The notes under the pieces were generated by a model. It made no database searches. It saw only the letters and a program-made list of their open reading frames with translations, and was not told the DNA's origin. From Saprospiraceae bacterium (GTDB lineage Bacteria; Bacteroidota; Bacteroidia; Chitinophagales; Saprospiraceae): 64,000 bases of DNA. Below, in pieces: positions 42,979-52,004 of this stretch. Numbering within the stretch: position 1 is the stretch's first letter; each line of letters opens with the position of its first letter. The position numbers were made by a program, and so were the translations under genes. The DNA lies in contig JABAQQ010000010.1 in assembly GCA_019187225.1 (NCBI GenBank), positions 94,866 to 158,865 on the forward strand, read 5' to 3'.

Positions 42979-43121
42979 GGGGTTGGTCAAAAGACTTGAA
43001 AATTGGTCATTGTAAATTGTACGTTGAAAATTTTGATTTATAAATTATTAAATTTTAAATATAAAAATTTTCAATGTACAATGACCAATTTTCAATGTAC
43101 AATGACATTTGACGCAACCCC
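42979..43121. mobile_element. MITE-like element with IS1182-type ends
   Basis: A 143-bp AT-rich element. Its outer ends, GGGGTTGGTCAAA at 42979-42991 and TTTGACGCAACCCC at 43108-43121, match the first 14 bases of the IS1182-family ends at 7872-9734 (GGGGTTGTGTCAAA) apart from one base or gap. Inside, GAAAATTGGTCATTGTAAAT, TGTACGTTGAAAATTTT and the reverse words at 43064-43105 are complementary, so it folds into one long hairpin. No coding sequence. It starts 1 bp after the stop of the DUF2723 gene. Confidence 0.7.
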
Positions 43122-45139: not shown

Positions 45140-45895
45140 ATGGGCAAAACCTACCACAAAATCATCCGGGGCGACAGCCGTTGCATGAAAGAAGTGCGCG
45201 ACGAGAGCGTGCACTTAGTCGTCACTTCGCCTCCGTATTGGCAACTCAAGGATTACGACACGGAAAATCAGATCGGCTTTCACGACGATTATGAGACGTA
45301 CATCAACCACCTCAACTTAGTGTGGAGCGAATGTCATCGCGTCCTGCACAAGGGCTGCCGGCTGTGCATCAATATCGGCGACCAGTTTGCCCGTTCGGTA
45401 TATTACGGTCGTTACAAAGTCATTCCGATCCGGACGGAAATCATAAAGTTCTGCGAATCCATTGGTTTCGATTATATTTTCAAAGACCCGCTGCGTTTGG
45501 ACAAAAAAATAGACGTAAAAAAACTTCAGTTCGGCTCCAAAATTGACCAAAACGGTTCAGCGAAGCGGGAGGAATATTTCACCGTGAAAGAAGTCATCAG
45601 CCCGGAATTGGTGCGCCTCAGCAATGGTCTCGAAGTGCGGCTTATCGGCGTCCGTGAAAACCCGACGCAAAATGGCAAAGCGAGCGATTGGCTGCGCGAA
45701 AAAACCAAAGGGCAGAAGGTCTTTCTGAAATTCGATGCGGTCAAGCACGATGCTGAAAACCGGATCATGGCATACCTATATTTACAAAACAAGACATTTG
45801 TGAATGCGCATTTGATACGGTCGGGATTGGTGGGGGTGGATAATTCTTTGGATTTCAGGTATAAAATGAAGTTCGACTCTATGCACAATGGTTGA
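45140..45895 (+). CDS. DNA methyltransferase (motif IV half) fused to SNase-like domain; core missing
   Basis: A 251-residue protein. Residues 1-112 are the N-terminal half of a beta-class N4-cytosine/N6-adenine methyltransferase: motif IV TSPPYW in LVVTSPPYWQLKDYD, then RVLHKGCRLCINIGDQFAR and TEIIKFCESIGFDYI. The usual continuation (IIW.K, target recognition, then the SAM-binding FxGxG motif) is absent. Instead, from about 113 (FKDPLRLDKKIDVKKLQFGS), the chain runs into a staphylococcal-nuclease-like domain at 150-245: VRLIGVRENPTQNGKASDWL, KFDAVKHDAENRIMAYLYL, FVNAHLIRSGLVGVDN. Family methyltransferases are 300-400 residues. Without motif I, methylation is unlikely. It could be an internally deleted methyltransferase-nuclease fusion. 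First gene of a defence-like group. Confidence 0.7.
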   Translation: MGKTYHKIIRGDSRCMKEVRDESVHLVVTSPPYWQLKDYDTENQIGFHDDYETYINHLNLVWSECHRVLHKGCRLCINIGDQFARSVYYGRYKVIPIRTEIIKFCESIGFDYIFKDPLRLDKKIDVKKLQFGSKIDQNGSAKREEYFTVKEVISPELVRLSNGLEVRLIGVRENPTQNGKASDWLREKTKGQKVFLKFDAVKHDAENRIMAYLYLQNKTFVNAHLIRSGLVGVDNSLDFRYKMKFDSMHNG

Positions 45896-46073: not shown

Positions 46074-47048
46074 ATGGGAAACTCTTCGGTAGCAGTCTTT
46101 GTGTTATTTCACGACCAGGATAAACTGGAAAAGGATACAATAGTGCGGCATTTGTCGGTGTTGAAAAGGGACGGAAAAATTTATCTGTGGGAAGAAGGCT
46201 TTGTGCTGGCCGGCGAGAACACGGAACAATTGATTCGAACGGAACTGGAAAAAGCCGATATAGTGCTTTTTTTAGTTAGCGTTGAATCAGTTGATTCTGA
46301 CAGGATTTGGAAAGTAGGTGTGGAGCGTTCGCTGGAACGCCAAAATATGAATCAACTGATTTTTATCCCTGTTATCGTACGGGATTGCGTTTGGGAGGAA
46401 ACACTTTTAGCTAATTTCAAACCGCTCCCCGAAAACGGCAAGCCTATCTCACATTGGACCAGAATTGATGAACCATGTAAGCAAGTTGCCGTAGTCGTCA
46501 AGAAGCATGTTGAGAAAATCATACGCCAAAAGCAGAGCGAGAACAAGCAGCAGGGCGCGATACCTTCTGAATTCAAGGAGATTAATGCCATTTTTGAAAA
46601 AATGCCCGACAAAAAAATTATGAATCACATTCTTTTTGCCGATCAGGAAGGCAAGCCTGCAAGTGCTGCCCATTTTTCAATTTATGCTGAGATGCTGAAA
46701 ACCATTCATGCACAAATGCTTGTCCGGGAAGCATATAATTTTTATTTCGACAACCTCACGGACGCAAAAAAGGTGGAGGAAATAGGTGCCTCGATAAAAG
46801 AAAGGTCAGAATTACTCAAAATTGATGTCCTATCGTTGGGATTGATTGCCGAAGAATTGGAGGAAGCATCACGCCAGTTCAGACTGGATTTTGGAGTGCC
46901 CGAAAACAGAAAAAAAGATAATTGGCAATCGGCCAAAATGATGTTTGTCGAACCATTTTGTAATGTAATTTTGAAAAATGCAAATAAGCTCGCTACTTTG
47001 TCAAAATTTTCAGTCAATATTGACTTTCCCGATTTATCTTCTAACTAA
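46074..47048 (+). CDS. TIR-domain protein, defence effector candidate
   Basis: A 324-residue protein. Residues 4-145 form a bacterial TIR-type domain: AVFVLFHDQDKLEKDTIVRH, DGKIYLWEEGFVLAGEN in the WDD-loop position, KADIVLFLVSVESVDSDRIW, KVGVERSLERQ with the Glu at the usual catalytic position, and LIFIPVIVRDCVWEETLLAN followed by LPENGKPISHW. Residues 150-324 are helical and unrecognised (FSIYAEMLKTIHAQMLVREA, ELLKIDVLSLGLIAEELEEA). TIR domains of this class can cleave NAD. A likely promoter (TTTG ... CACCTTTG) lies 20-50 bp upstream. The small membrane-type gene follows after 19 bp, probably one operon. Confidence 0.7.
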   Translation: MGNSSVAVFVLFHDQDKLEKDTIVRHLSVLKRDGKIYLWEEGFVLAGENTEQLIRTELEKADIVLFLVSVESVDSDRIWKVGVERSLERQNMNQLIFIPVIVRDCVWEETLLANFKPLPENGKPISHWTRIDEPCKQVAVVVKKHVEKIIRQKQSENKQQGAIPSEFKEINAIFEKMPDKKIMNHILFADQEGKPASAAHFSIYAEMLKTIHAQMLVREAYNFYFDNLTDAKKVEEIGASIKERSELLKIDVLSLGLIAEELEEASRQFRLDFGVPENRKKDNWQSAKMMFVEPFCNVILKNANKLATLSKFSVNIDFPDLSSN

Positions 47049-47593: not shown

Positions 47594-48487
47594 ATGCAAT
47601 ACACCAAACCAGCGCTTCCCATTCCCAACCAAATTCGTTTGCTTCAAAGCCGGGGTTTAAATATCACCGACCTGGCTCAGGCGGAATCTTACCTCTCGCA
47701 CATCAGCTACTATCGGCTGCGGGCTTATACCTATCCATTTCAGGACAATACCAACGCAAATCACCCATTTCACCCAGGCGTTTCATTTGACGATGTACTA
47801 GACATTTACCGATTTGATCGAAAGCTACGCATTTTAGTATTCGATGCCATCGAGCGGATAGAAGTGGCACTGCGAACACAAATCATCTATCAGTGTTCTT
47901 TGGTGCATGGCAGTCATTTCTTTCAGCGTAAGTCATTGTACCACAATTACCTTAACTTCAAAAAAGACTTGAAAACGGTGGACAAGTAGATTCGACGCTC
48001 ATCAGAAGTATTCATCAAACATTATATCTCAAAATATACTACCCCGAAACGCCCTCCGGCTTGGATGGCGCTTGAAATACTTTCGCTCGGGACATTGTCA
48101 AAGTTGTTTGAAAACCTCCGTATTTCACCGGAAAAGAAGGCTATCGCAGCGCATTTTGGCTTGAACACTTTTGTGCTGGAAAGCTGGATGCACACGCTTA
48201 GTCATGTGCGCAACATTTGCGCTCATCATGGACGCATTTGGAACCGCACGCTCACGCAGATTCCCAAATTGCCAAAAAATCCTTCCTTCAAATGGATCGG
48301 CAACTCAACCATTTCACCCGACCGGCTTTATGCGACGCTCTGCTGTATTCAATACCTGTTGAATACCGTCGCGCCCAATCATACTTTCCACAATCGGTTG
48401 AAAAATTTGTTGCTGGAGTATCCTAAAACCGATTTGATGAGTATGGGTTTCCCTTCAGGTTGGGAAGCAGAAGCGTTTTGGAAATAA
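47594..48487 (+). pseudogene. Abi_2 family (AbiD/F-like) abortive infection gene with an in-frame stop
   Basis: Both halves are in one frame. The first (47594-47989) is ALPIPNQIRLLQSRGLNITD, SHISYYRLRAYTYPFQ, FDRKLRILVFDAIERIEVAL, and ends KTVDK at a TAG (47987-47989). The frame continues past it with IRRSSEVFIKHYISKYTTP, PPAWMALEILSLGTLSKLFE, LSHVRNICAHHGRIWNR (RNxCAHH motif of the family) to 48487. The joined product of 297 residues has the normal length and domain order of Abi_2. In other members this site is often Glu, so a GAG-to-TAG change would explain the break. Known: AbiD/F act in phage resistance. The gene is probably inactive, unless the stop is read through. Confidence 0.85.
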
Positions 48488-48494
48488 ATTTTCC

Positions 48495-50432
48495 CTACCA
48501 CACCACAAACTCCGTCCTCCGGTTCCTCCCCCTCCCCTCTGCCGTATCATTCGTCTCCACCGGCTGCGATTCGCCAAAACCCTTGTATTTCAGGCGTTCG
48601 GCGGCGATGTTTTTGGCGATCAGGCACTCGTAAACGGCCTTCGCGCGGGCTTCGGAAAGGCGCTGGTTGGAAGCATCGTCGCCTACATTGTCGGTATGGC
48701 CATTGATCTGGATTTTCAAAGTCGGCACTTCGGTCAGCAAGGCGGCGAGGCGGTCGAGTTCGGCGGAAGAAGCGGCTAAAAGCGCGGCGGAGCCGGTTTC
48801 AAAAAAGACGTTGCGCAGGGCGATCGGTTTGGAGGATGCGACGGCGGCGGCTTCGTCGCCAATCGGCTGCAATTCTATGGTCAGCAAAAAAGGCTTTTCA
48901 AAAGTCGCCGTTTCCACGAGGTTGAAATTTTCGGAATAGAACAGGTATTTGTCTTTGCTCACGTTTAGCGCGTAGTCTTTTCCAGCGGGCAGGCAAACGA
49001 GGAACGATCCGTCGGATTTTGTGTTGGCCGAAACGTGCGACTGGCCGGTTTTCAGGTCGGTGAATTCCACTTTCGCCACAAGCGGGTTGCCGGTGACGGC
49101 GTCTTTCACTTTCGCGCGGGCGTAGGTGACAGGTTGCGGCCGGGCGTTCGCGGGTAGTTCGAACTGGTAAATATCAATCCTTCCCTGACTGTCGGAACGG
49201 TTGGCGGCGAAATAGGCCGTGCGGCCGTCGAGGCTGACGGTCAGGGTGCCTTCATTGACTTTCGTATTGATGGGGTAGCCGAGATTTTGAGGCGCTCCCC
49301 AGGAGCCGTCGGGTTGGCGGCGGGCGAGATAGAGGTCGTTTTCGCCCATGCCCGGCAATCCGTTGGAGGTAAAATAGAGCGTCTGGCCGTCGGGATGGAG
49401 GAAAGGTGTCTGTTCGTCGCCATCGGTGTTGATGCCATCGCCGAGGTTCTCGGGTTTACTCCACTTGCCGCCGGGCTGGCGGGTAGTCATCCAAAGGTCT
49501 CTGCCGCCTTTGCCGCCGGGACGCATACTACTGAAGAACAGCGTTTTGCCGTCGGCGCTGATGCAGGGTTGGGCGTCCCAATCGGACGAATTGATGGCAG
49601 CACTGAAAGGTACCGGTTTTGTCCAGCCCGTGTTTTTTAGTTGCGACCAATACAGATCGCAACTGCCCTGAGAGCCGTCGTCGCGGCGGTTGCAAGCGGT
49701 AAAAACAAGCCATGAACCGTCGGGGCTGATGTGTTGAGCGCCTTCGTTTTGGGGCGTGTTGACGCCCGTGAGTGGCTCGGCAGTTTGCCAGGCGCCGTTT
49801 TTAAATTCGCTTTGATAAAAATTTTCGTCAATAAAATCGCGTCGGGTGAAAATCATTATGCTGCCGTCGGCGGTAAGGGAGGGCAGATATTCATCGGCAG
49901 GGGAGTTGATGCCGTTGCCGACGGGTCTCGGGTCGAACGGCACAGGTTTTTTCACGGCTTCGGCGGCAAAACGGGCGTTAGCGGCCAGGCGTTTGGCTTC
50001 GCGGACAATTTCGGCGTCAGACGAGTTCGATTTTAAAAATATCTCGGCGTGGAGAGCGGCTTCCCCGAATTTATCCTGCTCCCATTCGGCGAGGGCGAGG
50101 GTAAAAAAGGCGGCACGCTGGTAGTTCGCGTCGAGCGCGATGACTTTTTCAAAACCCTCTTCTGCCCGCGCGTAATCCTTGATCTTCAATTGCGAACCCG
50201 CCCATAGCAACTGTGCATCTATAAATGTAGGGCATGCTTTCAGCGCCCGTTCGAAGTAGCCGAGCGCGATTACAGTGTTGCCTTTCCGCGCTTCCATGAC
50301 GCCGTCGTTGTAATCGTTTTTAGCCTTGTTTGGCGCGCTTTCGACCGTGTAGTAGGGCGGCTGCGGTTTTTGAGCGATAGCGGCAGTTGCGTATACAAGC
50401 AGGGCGAAACAAAGGAGCAGGTTCCGTTTCAT
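48495..50432 (-). CDS. TPR-PD40-OmpA protein (PorE-like)
   Basis: A 645-residue exported protein. Signal peptide MKRNLLLCFALLVYATAAIAQ; TPR-like repeats at 30-150 (DGVMEARKGNTVIALGYFER, ALKACPTFIDAQLLWAG); a WD40-like PD40 propeller at 165-440 (YLPSLTADGSIMIFTRRDF, SPDGSWLVFTACNRRDDGS, SADGKTLFFSSMRPGGKGGR, HPDGQTLYFTSNGLPGMGEN); a carboxypeptidase-regulatory-like fold at about 440-525; and an OmpA-like peptidoglycan-binding domain at 530-645 (TLKIQINGHTDNVGDDASNQ, LKYKGFGESQPVETN). This order matches PorE of the T9SS and its paralogues, which tether complexes to peptidoglycan. An inverted tandem array ends 30 bp upstream of its start codon. Confidence 0.88.
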   Translation of the reverse strand: MKRNLLLCFALLVYATAAIAQKPQPPYYTVESAPNKAKNDYNDGVMEARKGNTVIALGYFERALKACPTFIDAQLLWAGSQLKIKDYARAEEGFEKVIALDANYQRAAFFTLALAEWEQDKFGEAALHAEIFLKSNSSDAEIVREAKRLAANARFAAEAVKKPVPFDPRPVGNGINSPADEYLPSLTADGSIMIFTRRDFIDENFYQSEFKNGAWQTAEPLTGVNTPQNEGAQHISPDGSWLVFTACNRRDDGSQGSCDLYWSQLKNTGWTKPVPFSAAINSSDWDAQPCISADGKTLFFSSMRPGGKGGRDLWMTTRQPGGKWSKPENLGDGINTDGDEQTPFLHPDGQTLYFTSNGLPGMGENDLYLARRQPDGSWGAPQNLGYPINTKVNEGTLTVSLDGRTAYFAANRSDSQGRIDIYQFELPANARPQPVTYARAKVKDAVTGNPLVAKVEFTDLKTGQSHVSANTKSDGSFLVCLPAGKDYALNVSKDKYLFYSENFNLVETATFEKPFLLTIELQPIGDEAAAVASSKPIALRNVFFETGSAALLAASSAELDRLAALLTEVPTLKIQINGHTDNVGDDASNQRLSEARAKAVYECLIAKNIAAERLKYKGFGESQPVETNDTAEGRGRNRRTEFVVW

Positions 50433-50463
50433 ACTTTTTTGATTTTGGGCAAAAACGAAAAGA

Positions 50464-50630
50464 GGTTATTGGTTATTGGTTATTGGTGATTGGTGGATTG
50501 GTGGATTGGTGGATTGGTGGATTGGTGATTGGTGGATTGGTGATTGGTGGATTGGTGATTGGTGGATTGGTGATTGGTGGATTGGTGATTGGTGGATTGG
50601 TGATTGGTGGATTGGTGATTGGTGGATTGG
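50464..50630 (+). repeat. Tandem array, left arm of a giant inverted repeat
   Basis: Three TTATTGG words, then several TGGATTGG units, then seven exact copies of the 15-nt unit TGATTGGTGGATTGG (50526-50630). The reverse complement of the same words forms the array at 50804-50925. The array begins about 32 bp upstream of the OmpA/PD40 start codon. Open frames across it are low-complexity (IGGLV/WWIGD) and not genes. Confidence 0.95.
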
Positions 50631-50640
50631 TTCCGTAAAG

Positions 50641-50760
50641 TTGACACAGTTATTTGAACACTCCCGTGTTTAATTTTTTTATGTTTTTTTTAATTTATTG
50701 AAAATCAGTATTTTAATATAAATTCACCAAGGAGATTGACACAGAATTTTGAACACCCTC
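50641..50760 (+). repeat. Direct repeat in the spacer of the inverted array
   Basis: TTGACACAG ... TGAACACTCCC (50641-50665) recurs as TTGACACAG ... TGAACACCCTC (50736-50760), about 95 bp apart, with AT-rich DNA between. After it comes GAACAATC three times (50761-50790). The 50433-50933 gap thus consists of two arrays and this spacer. Confidence 0.75.
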
Positions 50761-50803
50761 GAACAATCCCTGAACAATCGCGAACAATCCCATTTGAACG
50801 CTC

Positions 50804-50925
50804 CCACCAATCCACCAATCCACCAATCCACCAATCCACCAATCCACCAATCCACCAATCCACCAATCCACCAATCCACCAATCACCAATCCACCAATCA
50901 CCAATCCACCAATCACCAAGAACCA
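50804..50925 (-). repeat. Tandem array, right arm of the giant inverted repeat
   Basis: About nine copies of CCACCAAT followed by CACCAATCCACCAAT-type 15-nt units, directly next to the prfA stop codon (50934-50936). On the minus strand it reads as GATTGGTG words, as the left array does on the plus strand. A transcript running from prfA to the OmpA gene would fold it against 50464-50630 in a stem of about 120 bp. Confidence 0.95.
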
Positions 50926-50933
50926 GGAACCAA

Positions 50934-52004
50934 TTACCCCTCCTGTAACTTCGCCGCGTTGTCCGCGATCGTCAGCGCCTCGATGATCGGCTCCAGATCG
51001 CCTTCGATGACCTTGTCTAAGTTGAAGTTTTTGTTGTCGCCTTCCAGCCGGTGGTCGGTCACGCGGTTTTGCGGCCAGTTGTAGGTGCGGATCTTTTCCG
51101 AGCGGTCGCCGGATCCGACAAGGCTGCGGCGGGCGAAGGCGAGGGCCGAGGCTTCTTTCTGTATCTGTGCCTCACGGATTTGCTGGATAAGGCGTCCCAT
51201 GGCGATTTCGCGGTTTTTATGCTGCGAACGGCTCTCCGTGCTTTCGGCCACCACGCCGGTGGGGAGGTGGGTGAACCGCACACCCGATTCCGTCCGGTTG
51301 ACGTGCTGGCCGCCGGCACCCGAAGCGCGGAACACATCGGTGCGGATGTCTTCTTTGCGGATGTCTATGTCTTCGGGCTCCATCATAGGCAAAACGGCCA
51401 CCGTTGCCGCTGAAGTATGGACGCGGCCTTTGGCTTCGGTATCGGGTACGCGCTGGACGCGGTGGGCGCCCGATTCGAATTTGAGTTTGCCGTACACATT
51501 CTCGCCCCGCACTTCGAGCACGAGTTTGGCATAGCCCCCTACTGTGCCCGGGTTTTCGTCCACGACTTCCACTTCCCAGCCCTGAGCGGCGAAGTAACGT
51601 CCGTACATCCGGTAGAGATCGCCGGCAAACAACGCCGCTTCGTCGCCGCCGGTACCGGAACGTATTTCGAAAATCACGTCCTTTTCATCCTCCGGGTCTC
51701 TGGGGGTAAGCAGTGTTTTGAGTTCGGATTCGAGGATATCCAGTTCGGGTTCGAGGATTTCGATTTCGTCCTTTGCCAGGTCGCGCATGTCTGGATCGCT
51801 TTCGGAAGTCAGCATCGAGCGGGCGTTGTCGAGATTAGACAACACCCTTTCGTACTTGTCAGCGGCCTGGATGATCGGCTGGAGTTTTTTGTATTCCCTG
51901 TTTACTTTTTTGGAGCGTTCCATATCGGCCACGATACCGGGATCGGAGAGCTGCTCTTCCAAGTGAATGTACTTTTCGCGGAGGGCTTGCAGTTTGTCGA
52001 GCAT
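50934..52004 (-). CDS. prfA: Peptide chain release factor 1
   Basis: A 356-residue class I release factor. The catalytic GGQ is at 231-233 in RASGAGGQHVNRTESGVRF; the PxT stop-codon-reading motif is PDT at 187-189 in HRVQRVPDTEAKGRVHTSA, which is the release-factor-1 signature (UAA and UAG). N-terminal helical domain 1-110, core 110-300 (SGTGGDEAALFAGDLYRMY), C-terminal domain with KIRTYNWPQNRVTDHRLEG. It acts in the cytoplasm on the ribosome. Normal length. The presence of factor 1 is relevant to the TAG in the Abi gene: TAG is read as a stop in this organism. Confidence 0.97.
   Translation of the reverse strand: MLDKLQALREKYIHLEEQLSDPGIVADMERSKKVNREYKKLQPIIQAADKYERVLSNLDNARSMLTSESDPDMRDLAKDEIEILEPELDILESELKTLLTPRDPEDEKDVIFEIRSGTGGDEAALFAGDLYRMYGRYFAAQGWEVEVVDENPGTVGGYAKLVLEVRGENVYGKLKFESGAHRVQRVPDTEAKGRVHTSAATVAVLPMMEPEDIDIRKEDIRTDVFRASGAGGQHVNRTESGVRFTHLPTGVVAESTESRSQHKNREIAMGRLIQQIREAQIQKEASALAFARRSLVGSGDRSEKIRTYNWPQNRVTDHRLEGDNKNFNLDKVIEGDLEPIIEALTIADNAAKLQEG

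What the first reader, a model, noticed from the sequence alone, without database searches (positions are those of the whole stretch)
50464..50938. Giant inverted pair of tandem arrays between prfA and an OmpA/PD40 gene
Seven exact 15-nt units on one side and about a dozen complementary words on the other flank a 170-bp spacer with its own direct repeat. RNA from this gap would fold into a stem of about 120 bp ending 30 nt from the OmpA/PD40 start codon. Copy number can change by slippage and so could tune expression. No spacers, no coding and no transposase ends are seen.
Basis: partly seen in the sequence, partly recalled or inferred. Interest (0 to 1): 0.75.

Follow-up and report, generated by a model that had tools for sequence, protein, structure and literature searches.

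The report
Mirrored repeat hairpins at gene ends
The gap between two genes holds a giant hairpin built from two mirrored runs of a short repeated DNA word; it is one of many such hairpins in this bacterium, related species carry them at the same gene ends with different words, and the G-rich run nearly always comes first, for reasons not yet known.

Summary
Confirmed, with corrections. Window 50464-50936 holds two inverted tandem arrays (GATTGGTG words, then CCACCAAT words) filling the gap between prfA and an OmpA/PD40 gene, with 125 predicted arm-to-arm RNA pairs. The spacer holds IS256-type ends; one is identical over 25 nt to the end beside a Transposase_mut gene in this genome.

It is one of a class. 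In 1.596 Mb of the genome I found 69 inverted array pairs with many words: 64 have the G-rich arm first, 2 the C-rich arm, 3 are mixed. Hairpins without arrays show little bias (53:41 here, 30:17 in a relative). At rpoA-rplQ, 22 of 29 readable same-genus gaps carry such a hairpin, about ten word families, all G-first. After prfA itself the picture is looser.

Sense-strand mismatches show no G-U preference, so I favour a DNA-level origin: slippage plus hairpin template switching, with IS256-type elements landing in loops. The same strand rule and inverted pairs are published for quadruplex-forming words in Xanthomonas and Nostoc (PMC4692102). Expression tuning is untested.

The parts
50934..52004 (-). 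prfA, peptide chain release factor 1; its stop codon lies inside the outermost array word
   Evidence: Pfam PCRF and RF-1; ORF; sequence
50804..50936 (-). First arm in gene sense: G/T-rich array (GGATTGG, GATTGGT words; outermost TAATTGG, TTCCTGG, TTCTTGG). Reads CCACCAAT on the + strand
   Evidence: TRF 14.9 copies of 8 nt over 50804-50919; repeats; outer words by eye
50636..50803 (.). Spacer (loop), 168 bp, made at least in part of remnants of IS256-type elements
50750..50791 (.). Short tandem duplication, two 21-nt copies, overlapping the IS-type end and reaching towards the arm
   Evidence: TRF 2.0 copies, 85%
50736..50760 (.). IS256-type terminal sequence TTGACACAGAATTTTGAACACCCTC, same orientation as the other one
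   Evidence: 3 mismatches to the search pattern; 81% alike to 50641-50666
50666..50735 (.). A+T-rich interior of the element remnant, similar by eye to cores at other loci
   Evidence: compared by eye with L060, L076 and C1:259912
50641..50665 (.). IS256-type terminal sequence, identical over 25 nt to the end that lies about 180 bp beyond a Transposase_mut match on contig C40
   Evidence: six identical copies in the genome including this one; PF00872 at C40:4-345; context
50464..50635 (-). Second arm in gene sense: C/A-rich array. Reads GATTGGTG(G) on the + strand
   Evidence: TRF 11.2 copies of 15 nt over 50464-50631; eight exact units 50512-50631
50433..50463 (-). Leader of the OmpA/PD40 gene, similar by eye to the relative's leader (TTTTTGCCCAAA ... 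AAAA .. TATG)
   Evidence: compared by eye with L085
48495..50432 (-). PD40 + OmpA-domain protein gene (weak TPR match below the Pfam cut-off)
   Evidence: Pfam PD40 and OmpA

Best explanation
This is an 'array hairpin': a quasi-palindrome whose two arms are tandem arrays of the same short word. It is one of many in this Saprospiraceae genome. SHOWN: the arms of a locus usually share words; the words differ widely between loci and, at the same site, between species; the arm read first is almost always G-rich and C-poor, the second the reverse; the arms usually abut gene ends; IS256-type ends sit in the loops of some. INFERRED: words multiply by replication slippage; a nascent strand folds back on its own array and copies it, making or repairing the second arm (quasi-palindrome template switching); this keeps the arms alike while the words turn over. 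IS256-type miniature elements then insert into the loops, and their remnants are the spacer here. In RNA the result is a very stable stem between the prfA and ompA messages; any effect on expression is probably incidental. Why the G-rich arm comes first is not settled. My best guess is that G/T-rich 3' ends fold back and self-prime more readily than C/A-rich ones, and that pairs whose copied arm would run into a gene are lost.
For: Class: 394 intergenic arrays and 69 inverted pairs in 1.596 Mb; 64 G-first, 2 C-first, 3 mixed; 14 of 14 between convergent genes are G-first, where no start codon can impose a bias; 56 of 69 have an arm within 10 nt of a called gene end. Bias is mainly array-specific: hairpins overlapping arrays 38 G, 2 C, 9 neutral; other hairpins 53 G, 41 C, 36 neutral, in 800 kb of G000. 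Arms of one locus match: mean 7-mer containment 0.71 with the partner against 0.056 with other loci, 27 pairs. Word turnover at one site: rpoA-rplQ, 22 of 29 readable gaps with a significant inverted repeat, all 22 G-first, about ten word families by eye, 7 bare gaps. Similar after prfA: 12 of 30 same-genus loci, own included, have a significant inverted repeat. DNA rather than RNA: sense mismatches G-U 37, A-C 57; 11 and 11. Loops as landing sites: 13 of 15 intergenic IS256-type ends with the inner signature have an array on their outer side, against 6.6% of intergenic bases; exact 8-bp duplications at C1:203139 and L075, near ones at C4:302216 and C4:196155. Whole own genome, word GATTGCG: 21 overlapping G-first matches, 0 C-first.
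Against: No strain or read data, so slippage and copying are inferred, not seen. Single-strand folding of the arms supports the self-priming guess only weakly: G-rich arm more stable in 26, equal 25, C-rich more stable in 13 of 64. For 13 of 27 arms some other locus matches as well as the partner, and 57 of 69 pairs chain into one word cluster, so pairs are not independent and dispersal between loci is possible; a few arrays are also counted in two pairs. In G009, hairpins without called arrays lean G-first too, 30 G, 17 C, 27 neutral. After prfA the polarity is looser: of 12, 8 G-first, 3 neutral, 1 C-first, and only 8 of the 12 have a clearly repetitive first arm. The loop at C2:218482 shows inverted flanks and no target duplication; C3:203062 and C1:259912 are unclear. 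Upstream of starts, C-rich sequence is the background anyway.
Confidence: 0.5

Rival explanations
1. RNA-level element: the hairpin is kept because it ends, insulates or stabilises transcripts (or, tunes ompA by copy number).
For: Very stable stem; arms abut gene ends and occur between convergent and tandem genes; in Xanthomonas, putative G4-forming arrays lie more often where assembled transcripts start or stop than control arrays do (PMC4692102 section 15); same-site recurrence at rpoA-rplQ in 22 of 29 readable gaps.
Against: No G-U excess among sense mismatches in tandem pairs or at rpoA-rplQ. No T-tract terminator here. It occurs between rpoA and rplQ, presumably within one operon, and 7 of 29 readable gaps there lack it. 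Ordinary hairpins show little polarity.
Confidence: 0.22
2. Foldback-type mobile element: the arrays are the long terminal repeats of a transposable element that moves as a unit, as in Drosophila FB elements (recalled).
For: Anatomy matches: long inverted repeats made of tandem words around a variable loop. Word vocabulary is shared between loci.
Against: At one orthologous site about ten different words occur, which one mobile family would not give. The clear duplications lie at the IS256-type core, not at the outer edge of the arms. Many loops are only 3-40 nt long (43 of 69).
Confidence: 0.1
3. End-healing: G/T-rich words are added to 3' ends at breaks near gene edges by an unknown polymerase or reverse transcriptase, and the two ends are then joined, giving the head-to-head (GT)n(CA)n order of a telomere fusion (analogy recalled).
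For: Polarity holds in 14 of 14 convergent gaps. Of 7 neighbouring arrays with unrelated words in one gap, 5 are still G-first. Three reverse transcriptase domains are in the genome.
Against: Arms share complex locus-specific words, in places in the same order, which points to copying between arms. No result here links the reverse transcriptases to arrays. Nothing shows breaks.
Confidence: 0.08
4. Assembly artefact of a repetitive gap.
For: 73-contig draft; exact copy number may be off.
Against: The same class occurs in G009, a 7-contig relative (4 of 4 pairs G-first in 400 kb), at orthologous sites in many species and in some of 80 named-species loci (20 pairs).
Confidence: 0.02

Closest known systems
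GGGAATC / GGGGA(C/T)T heptamer arrays of Xanthomonas and Nostoc (PMC4692102; passages and sections 10, 13, 15, 16 read)
   Same: Intergenic heptamer arrays close to gene ends; G-rich on the coding strand after stops and on the non-coding strand before starts; 70 and 75 inverted pairs in 'convergent orientation' in two Xanthomonas genomes; under-represented between divergent genes; function left open
   Different: One kind of G-quadruplex-forming word per lineage there, reported as generally not associated with insertion sequences; here many words, no run longer than GG in this locus, longer arms, IS256-type ends in loops, and word turnover at the same site
TAACTGA arrays of Beggiatoaceae, Cyanobacteria and some Bacteroidetes (PMC4679880; abstract, sections 9 and 10 read)
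   Same: Heptamer arrays often next to start codons, indels in 7-nt steps between strains, reaching Bacteroidetes
   Different: A single word; 169 sets of direct repeats of two to six copies and one indirect repeat in the main genome
BrickBuilt MITE of Porphyromonas gingivalis (PMC4596501; abstract and section list seen)
   Same: Intergenic tandem repeats together with a miniature inverted-repeat element; also a Bacteroidota (recalled)
   Different: There a 23-nt repeat lies inside the element; here arrays of 7-8 nt words lie outside it, in inverted arms
IS256-family insertion sequences and their miniature derivatives (family name and 8-bp duplication recalled)
   Same: Spacer end identical to the end beside a Transposase_mut gene
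   Different: Only remnants here; the two ends point the same way and make no intact element
Quasi-palindrome template-switch mutation (PMC7202029, PMC8794818, PMC8604942; search listing with abstract starts only)
   Same: Homogenises or creates the arms of inverted repeats
   Different: The listings speak of hairpins and short inverted repeats; tandem-array arms with a strand polarity do not appear in what I saw
Drosophila FB foldback elements (recalled, no call)
   Same: Long inverted repeats made of tandem short repeats around a variable loop
   Different: One mobile family with its own words; here words differ by locus and species

Membership tests
Xanthomonas/Nostoc G-rich heptamer arrays (PMC4692102) | Strand rule: G-rich on coding strand after stop, on non-coding strand before start, within 50 bp | tested here: met
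   Locus: G/T-rich in sense from the prfA stop, C/A-rich in sense ending 31 nt before ompA
Xanthomonas/Nostoc G-rich heptamer arrays (PMC4692102) | Inverted pairs in convergent orientation | tested here: met
   This locus and 64 of 69 pairs in the sample
Xanthomonas/Nostoc G-rich heptamer arrays (PMC4692102) | Unit GGGAATC or GGGGA(C/T)T, with GGG runs able to form G-quadruplexes | tested here: not met
   Units GATTGGTG(G); longest G or C run in either array is 2
TAACTGA arrays (PMC4679880) | Unit TAACTGA | tested here: not met
IS256-family element (spacer) | Terminal sequence shared with an element encoding a Mutator-type transposase | tested here: met
   25-nt identity; PF00872 match beside it
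IS256-family element (spacer) | Intact pair of inverted ends with an 8-bp target duplication | tested here: not met
   In the window the two ends are in direct orientation; paired inverted ends, two of them with exact duplications, occur elsewhere
BrickBuilt MITE | 23-nt repeat inside leader and tail with small inverted ends | tested here: not met
   Periods are 15, 8 and 21 nt and the arrays lie outside the element ends
Intrinsic terminator | Stem followed by a T tract | tested here: not met
   0 found in 50300-51100; shuffles mean 1.4; the scan covers loops of 3-8 only
CRISPR array | Repeats separated by unique spacers | tested here: not met
   Units are head to tail
Foldback mobile element | Moves as a unit, with target duplications outside the arms | tested here: inconclusive
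   No strain pair with and without the element at this gap; in ACE_BAC3 the gap holds other genes
Known structured RNA (Rfam) | Match above a family's gathering score | tested here: not met
   0 in the window

The most novel reading that the evidence does not exclude
A directional process, active in several phyla, builds head-to-head arrays at gene ends: G/T-rich 3' ends are extended by short self-templated words and fold back or are joined, so that pairs carry the G-rich arm first whatever the word. If so, the Xanthomonas and Nostoc G-quadruplex arrays and these many-word hairpins are products of one polarity-setting mechanism rather than G-quadruplex regulators.
Probability: 0.15. Interest if true: 0.85.

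Novelty: new variant of a known kind. Interest (0 to 1): 0.58.

Why it matters
Short-word arrays near bacterial gene ends have long been known (recalled; PMC4692102 and PMC4679880 leave their function open). Here one genome offers many words under one strand rule, and one site (rpoA-rplQ) offers about ten words in sister species. That separates the rule from any given sequence, weakens explanations tied to G-quadruplexes or to start codons, and makes the origin testable by mutation accumulation or by comparing strains. It also shows IS256-type ends lying mostly between such arms in the sample, so these hairpins may shape where mobile elements land.

Tried and rejected
Rejected: start-codon constraint as the sole cause of polarity. 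Array-free regions before starts are C-rich anyway (skew -0.197; strong regions 156 C, 11 G of 430), but after stops there is no G bias (31 G, 50 C of 342), convergent gaps are 14 of 14 G-first, and at rpoA-rplQ a conserved stretch separates the arm from the start codon.

Weakened by myself: an early count of solo arrays (81 of 95 obeying the strand rule). Several 'solos' proved to have a weak second arm, and single arrays filling a short convergent gap can be read either way, so I lean on pairs only.

Gave little: phylum-wide searches for two words in both polarities, 345 genomes each. Outside the own genome one of 344 had a G-first match and none a C-first match, so those exact words in close pairs are rare in that sample. 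Loci of named species, chosen by the OmpA gene and not by arrays, gave 20 pairs: 16 G-first, 2 C-first, 2 other. Self-folding energies of arms: weak. Rfam with a permissive threshold on three rpoA-rplQ loci (L253, L264, L276) gave four matches, all to microRNA models below their gathering scores and all on L253, taken as chance from the long stem. Synteny of 400 kb of G009 with the 800 kb of G000 then held gave 30 reciprocal best hits and three gaps with an array on one side; in one the same word stands at the same place in fewer copies. Mismatch counts in convergent pairs (G-U 15, A-C 9) and divergent pairs (9, 9) have no defined sense and were not used. Paper searches: (Saprospiraceae + tandem repeats + intergenic) listed none; some searches gave the leads cited.

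Script faults: the own locus L253 was cut at the wrong place and scored as not significant; redone it scores 32 against a shuffle maximum of 12, G-first. The rpoA stop of L270 was misplaced; read again its gap is bare. L256 is cut by its contig end and was left out. In L268, L279 and L280 the two arms lie 96-137 nt apart. In one search the rpoA-rplQ part returned zero pairs; it was redone on the 21 loci. In one search word clustering chained nearly everything together.

Full report
WHAT IS THERE. The window belongs to a 7.18-Mb, 73-contig genome; the best named match by identity of its OmpA/PD40 protein is Saprospiraceae bacterium ACE_BAC3, 74%. Both genes lie on the minus strand: prfA (50934-52004), then the OmpA/PD40 gene (48495-50432). 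Read in gene sense the 501-bp gap runs: prfA stop codon inside the word TAATTGG; a G/T-rich array; a 168-bp spacer; a C/A-rich array; a 31-nt leader; the OmpA start. The predicted RNA has 125 arm-to-arm pairs, -274.9 kcal/mol, z -18.4. The outermost words (TTATTGG, TAATTGG, TTCCTGG) are more varied than the inner ones, by eye.

THE SPACER. Yet 50641-50665 is identical to a 25-nt sequence that occurs six times in the genome, this copy included. One copy lies about 180 bp beyond a Transposase_mut (PF00872) match at the start of contig C40, so I take it for the end of an IS256-type element. A second, diverged end stands at 50736-50760 in the same orientation. The spacer is thus at least partly a patchwork of element remnants. 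In the sampled 1.596 Mb, 15 intergenic matches to such ends also have the inner signature I required; 13 of them have an array on their outer side within 60 bp, against 6.6% of intergenic bases. Ends mostly come two per element, so these are fewer than 13 elements. Exact 8-bp direct duplications flank the element at C1:203139 (TTGACATG) and at L075 (CATTGGAC), with near ones at C4:302216 and C4:196155; at C2:218482 the flanks are inverted instead, and C3:203062 and C1:259912 are unclear. I read this as insertion into the loops of hairpins that were already there.

A CLASS, NOT A SINGLE LOCUS. A first census of 800 kb gave 27 pairs, all G-first. The larger sample of 1.596 Mb, which includes the first, gave 394 intergenic arrays and 69 inverted pairs: 64 G-first, 2 C-first, 3 mixed; G-first are 39 in tandem, 14 in convergent and 11 in divergent gaps; 43 loops are at most 40 nt; 8 loops hold an IS256-like end. 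Words include GATTGGTG, TTGGTTA, GATTGCG, GACGGTG, TTGGACG, CAGTGG, GGTTTACG, GTTGATGAG and others. In 400 kb of G009, four of four pairs are G-first. In 80 loci of named species (899 kb, chosen by the OmpA gene), 16 of 20 pairs are G-first, 2 C-first, 2 other. In 800 kb of G000, hairpins that overlap no called array are 53 G, 41 C, 36 neutral; those that do are 38 G, 2 C, 9 neutral. In G009 the figures are 30, 17, 27 and 8, 1, 2, so a mild G lean exists there without called arrays. For the word GATTGCG the whole own genome gives 21 overlapping G-first matches and no C-first match; for GATGAAT 3 and 0.

SAME SITE, OTHER WORDS. I compared the rpoA-rplQ gap in 30 same-genus loci, the 30 best of 38 genomes with a match. 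L256 is cut by a contig end. Of the other 29, 22 have an inverted repeat better than every shuffle, all 22 G-first (21, the own locus). Seven lack one: L264, L267, L270, L276, L277, L278 and L282; there the array is absent while the rest of the leader is kept. The words fall by eye into about ten families; related species share words, so these are not 22 independent events. Between the hairpin and rplQ lies a conserved stretch of about 70-85 nt, so the start codon is not next to the arm. After prfA, 12 of 30 same-genus loci, own included, have a significant inverted repeat within 420 nt of the stop: 8 G-first, 3 neutral, 1 C-first; in 8 of the 12 the first arm is clearly repetitive. So the window's own gap is also a recurrent place, with looser polarity. 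In ACE_BAC3 prfA and the OmpA gene are 2.4 kb apart with two other genes and no array between them; in G009 and G007 the 1.5 kb fetched after prfA likewise shows no array.

HOW IT PROBABLY WORKS. Arms of a locus share words (mean containment 0.71 against 0.056 with other loci), in places in the same order (for example C4:219869). If an RNA stem were under selection, G-U mismatches in the transcribed sense should be tolerated more than A-C. They are not: 37 against 57 in tandem pairs, 11 against 11 at rpoA-rplQ. So I favour copying at the DNA level: slippage multiplies words, and hairpin template switching copies one arm into the other. This would explain like arms and word turnover. It does not by itself explain polarity. 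A nascent G/T-rich 3' end that folds back and copies itself gives a G/T arm followed by a C/A arm on either strand, which fits; but single-strand folding energies support this only weakly (26 lower, 25 equal, 13 higher of 64). Steps shown: class, polarity, arm matching, different words at one site, elements in loops. Steps inferred: slippage, template switching, order of events, cause of polarity.

LIMITS. The pairs are not independent: for 13 of 27 arms another locus matches as well as the partner, 57 of 69 pairs chain by shared 7-mers, and a few arrays are counted in two pairs. Genes were called by a simple codon-score script. Copy numbers come from drafts. There are no reads, strains or RNA data. 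The upstream side of starts is C-rich by background, so the start side of the rule proves little; the convergent gaps and rpoA-rplQ carry the argument.

COMPARED WITH WHAT IS KNOWN. PMC4692102 (passages, and sections 10, 13, 15 and 16 read) describes GGGAATC-type arrays in Xanthomonas and Nostoc with the same strand rule, and 70 and 75 inverted pairs in convergent orientation in two Xanthomonas genomes. It leaves the function open and discusses G-quadruplexes. The present locus has no G run longer than 2, the genome uses many words, and some loops hold IS256-type ends, so the rule can hardly rest on quadruplexes alone. PMC4679880 (abstract, sections 9 and 10 read) describes TAACTGA arrays, many next to starts. 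BrickBuilt (PMC4596501; abstract and section list) is a repeat inside an element. My searches listed no report of many-word, polar array hairpins, but that library lacks most subscription papers; an earlier paper on small repeats and heptamers in cyanobacteria that I recall is not held.

VERDICT. Real, very unlikely an artefact, and not unique: a new variant of a known kind, with a polarity that remains unexplained.

Noticed in passing
L253-L282, gap between rpoA and rplQ (for example L264, L276-L278): A conserved stretch of about 70-85 nt (GTGGTAACCGT ... GCCCCGGTGCTGCCACCTAAACAAAAGGTAC) precedes rplQ in the readable gaps; in the three loci scanned (L253, L264, L276) no Rfam family matched it. 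It may be an unlisted ribosomal-protein leader RNA.
   Followed up: partly
window 42996-43095: A second, shorter hairpin in the window (TTGAAAATTGGTCATTGTAAATTG with CAATGTACAATGACCAATTTTCAA), also G-skewed arm first; both arms lie in small called arrays.
   Followed up: partly
window 47594-47989 and 48065-48487: One Abi_2-like family matched by two consecutive ORFs covering different parts of the profile, so the gene looks broken.
   Followed up: no
window 46074-47048: Protein with a weak TIR_2 match below the Pfam cut-off, possibly defence-related.
   Followed up: no
window 45140-45895: ORF matching a DNA methylase profile and a staphylococcal-nuclease profile in one frame, an odd combination.
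   Followed up: no
L085 3758-5569: In the relative ACE_BAC3 two genes, the first with an ATP-binding-like GPNGSGKS motif, stand between prfA and the OmpA gene where the window has the arrays; RloB-like by recall, not tested.
   Followed up: no
L059 2050-2077 and L062 2185-2205: GATTGGTG-type words lie inside long ORFs and are read through in frame, so arrays can enter coding sequence.
   Followed up: no
G000 C2:218482-218777: An IS256-type element with perfectly inverted flanks (ATAAACA / TGTTTAT) and no target duplication, as if one flank had been copied around the element.
   Followed up: partly
L068, L070, L071, L072, L081, L082 (contigs C1, C18, C40, C51, C55): Several contigs end at or near the IS256-type element, so its full-length copies seem broken by the assembly.
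   Followed up: no
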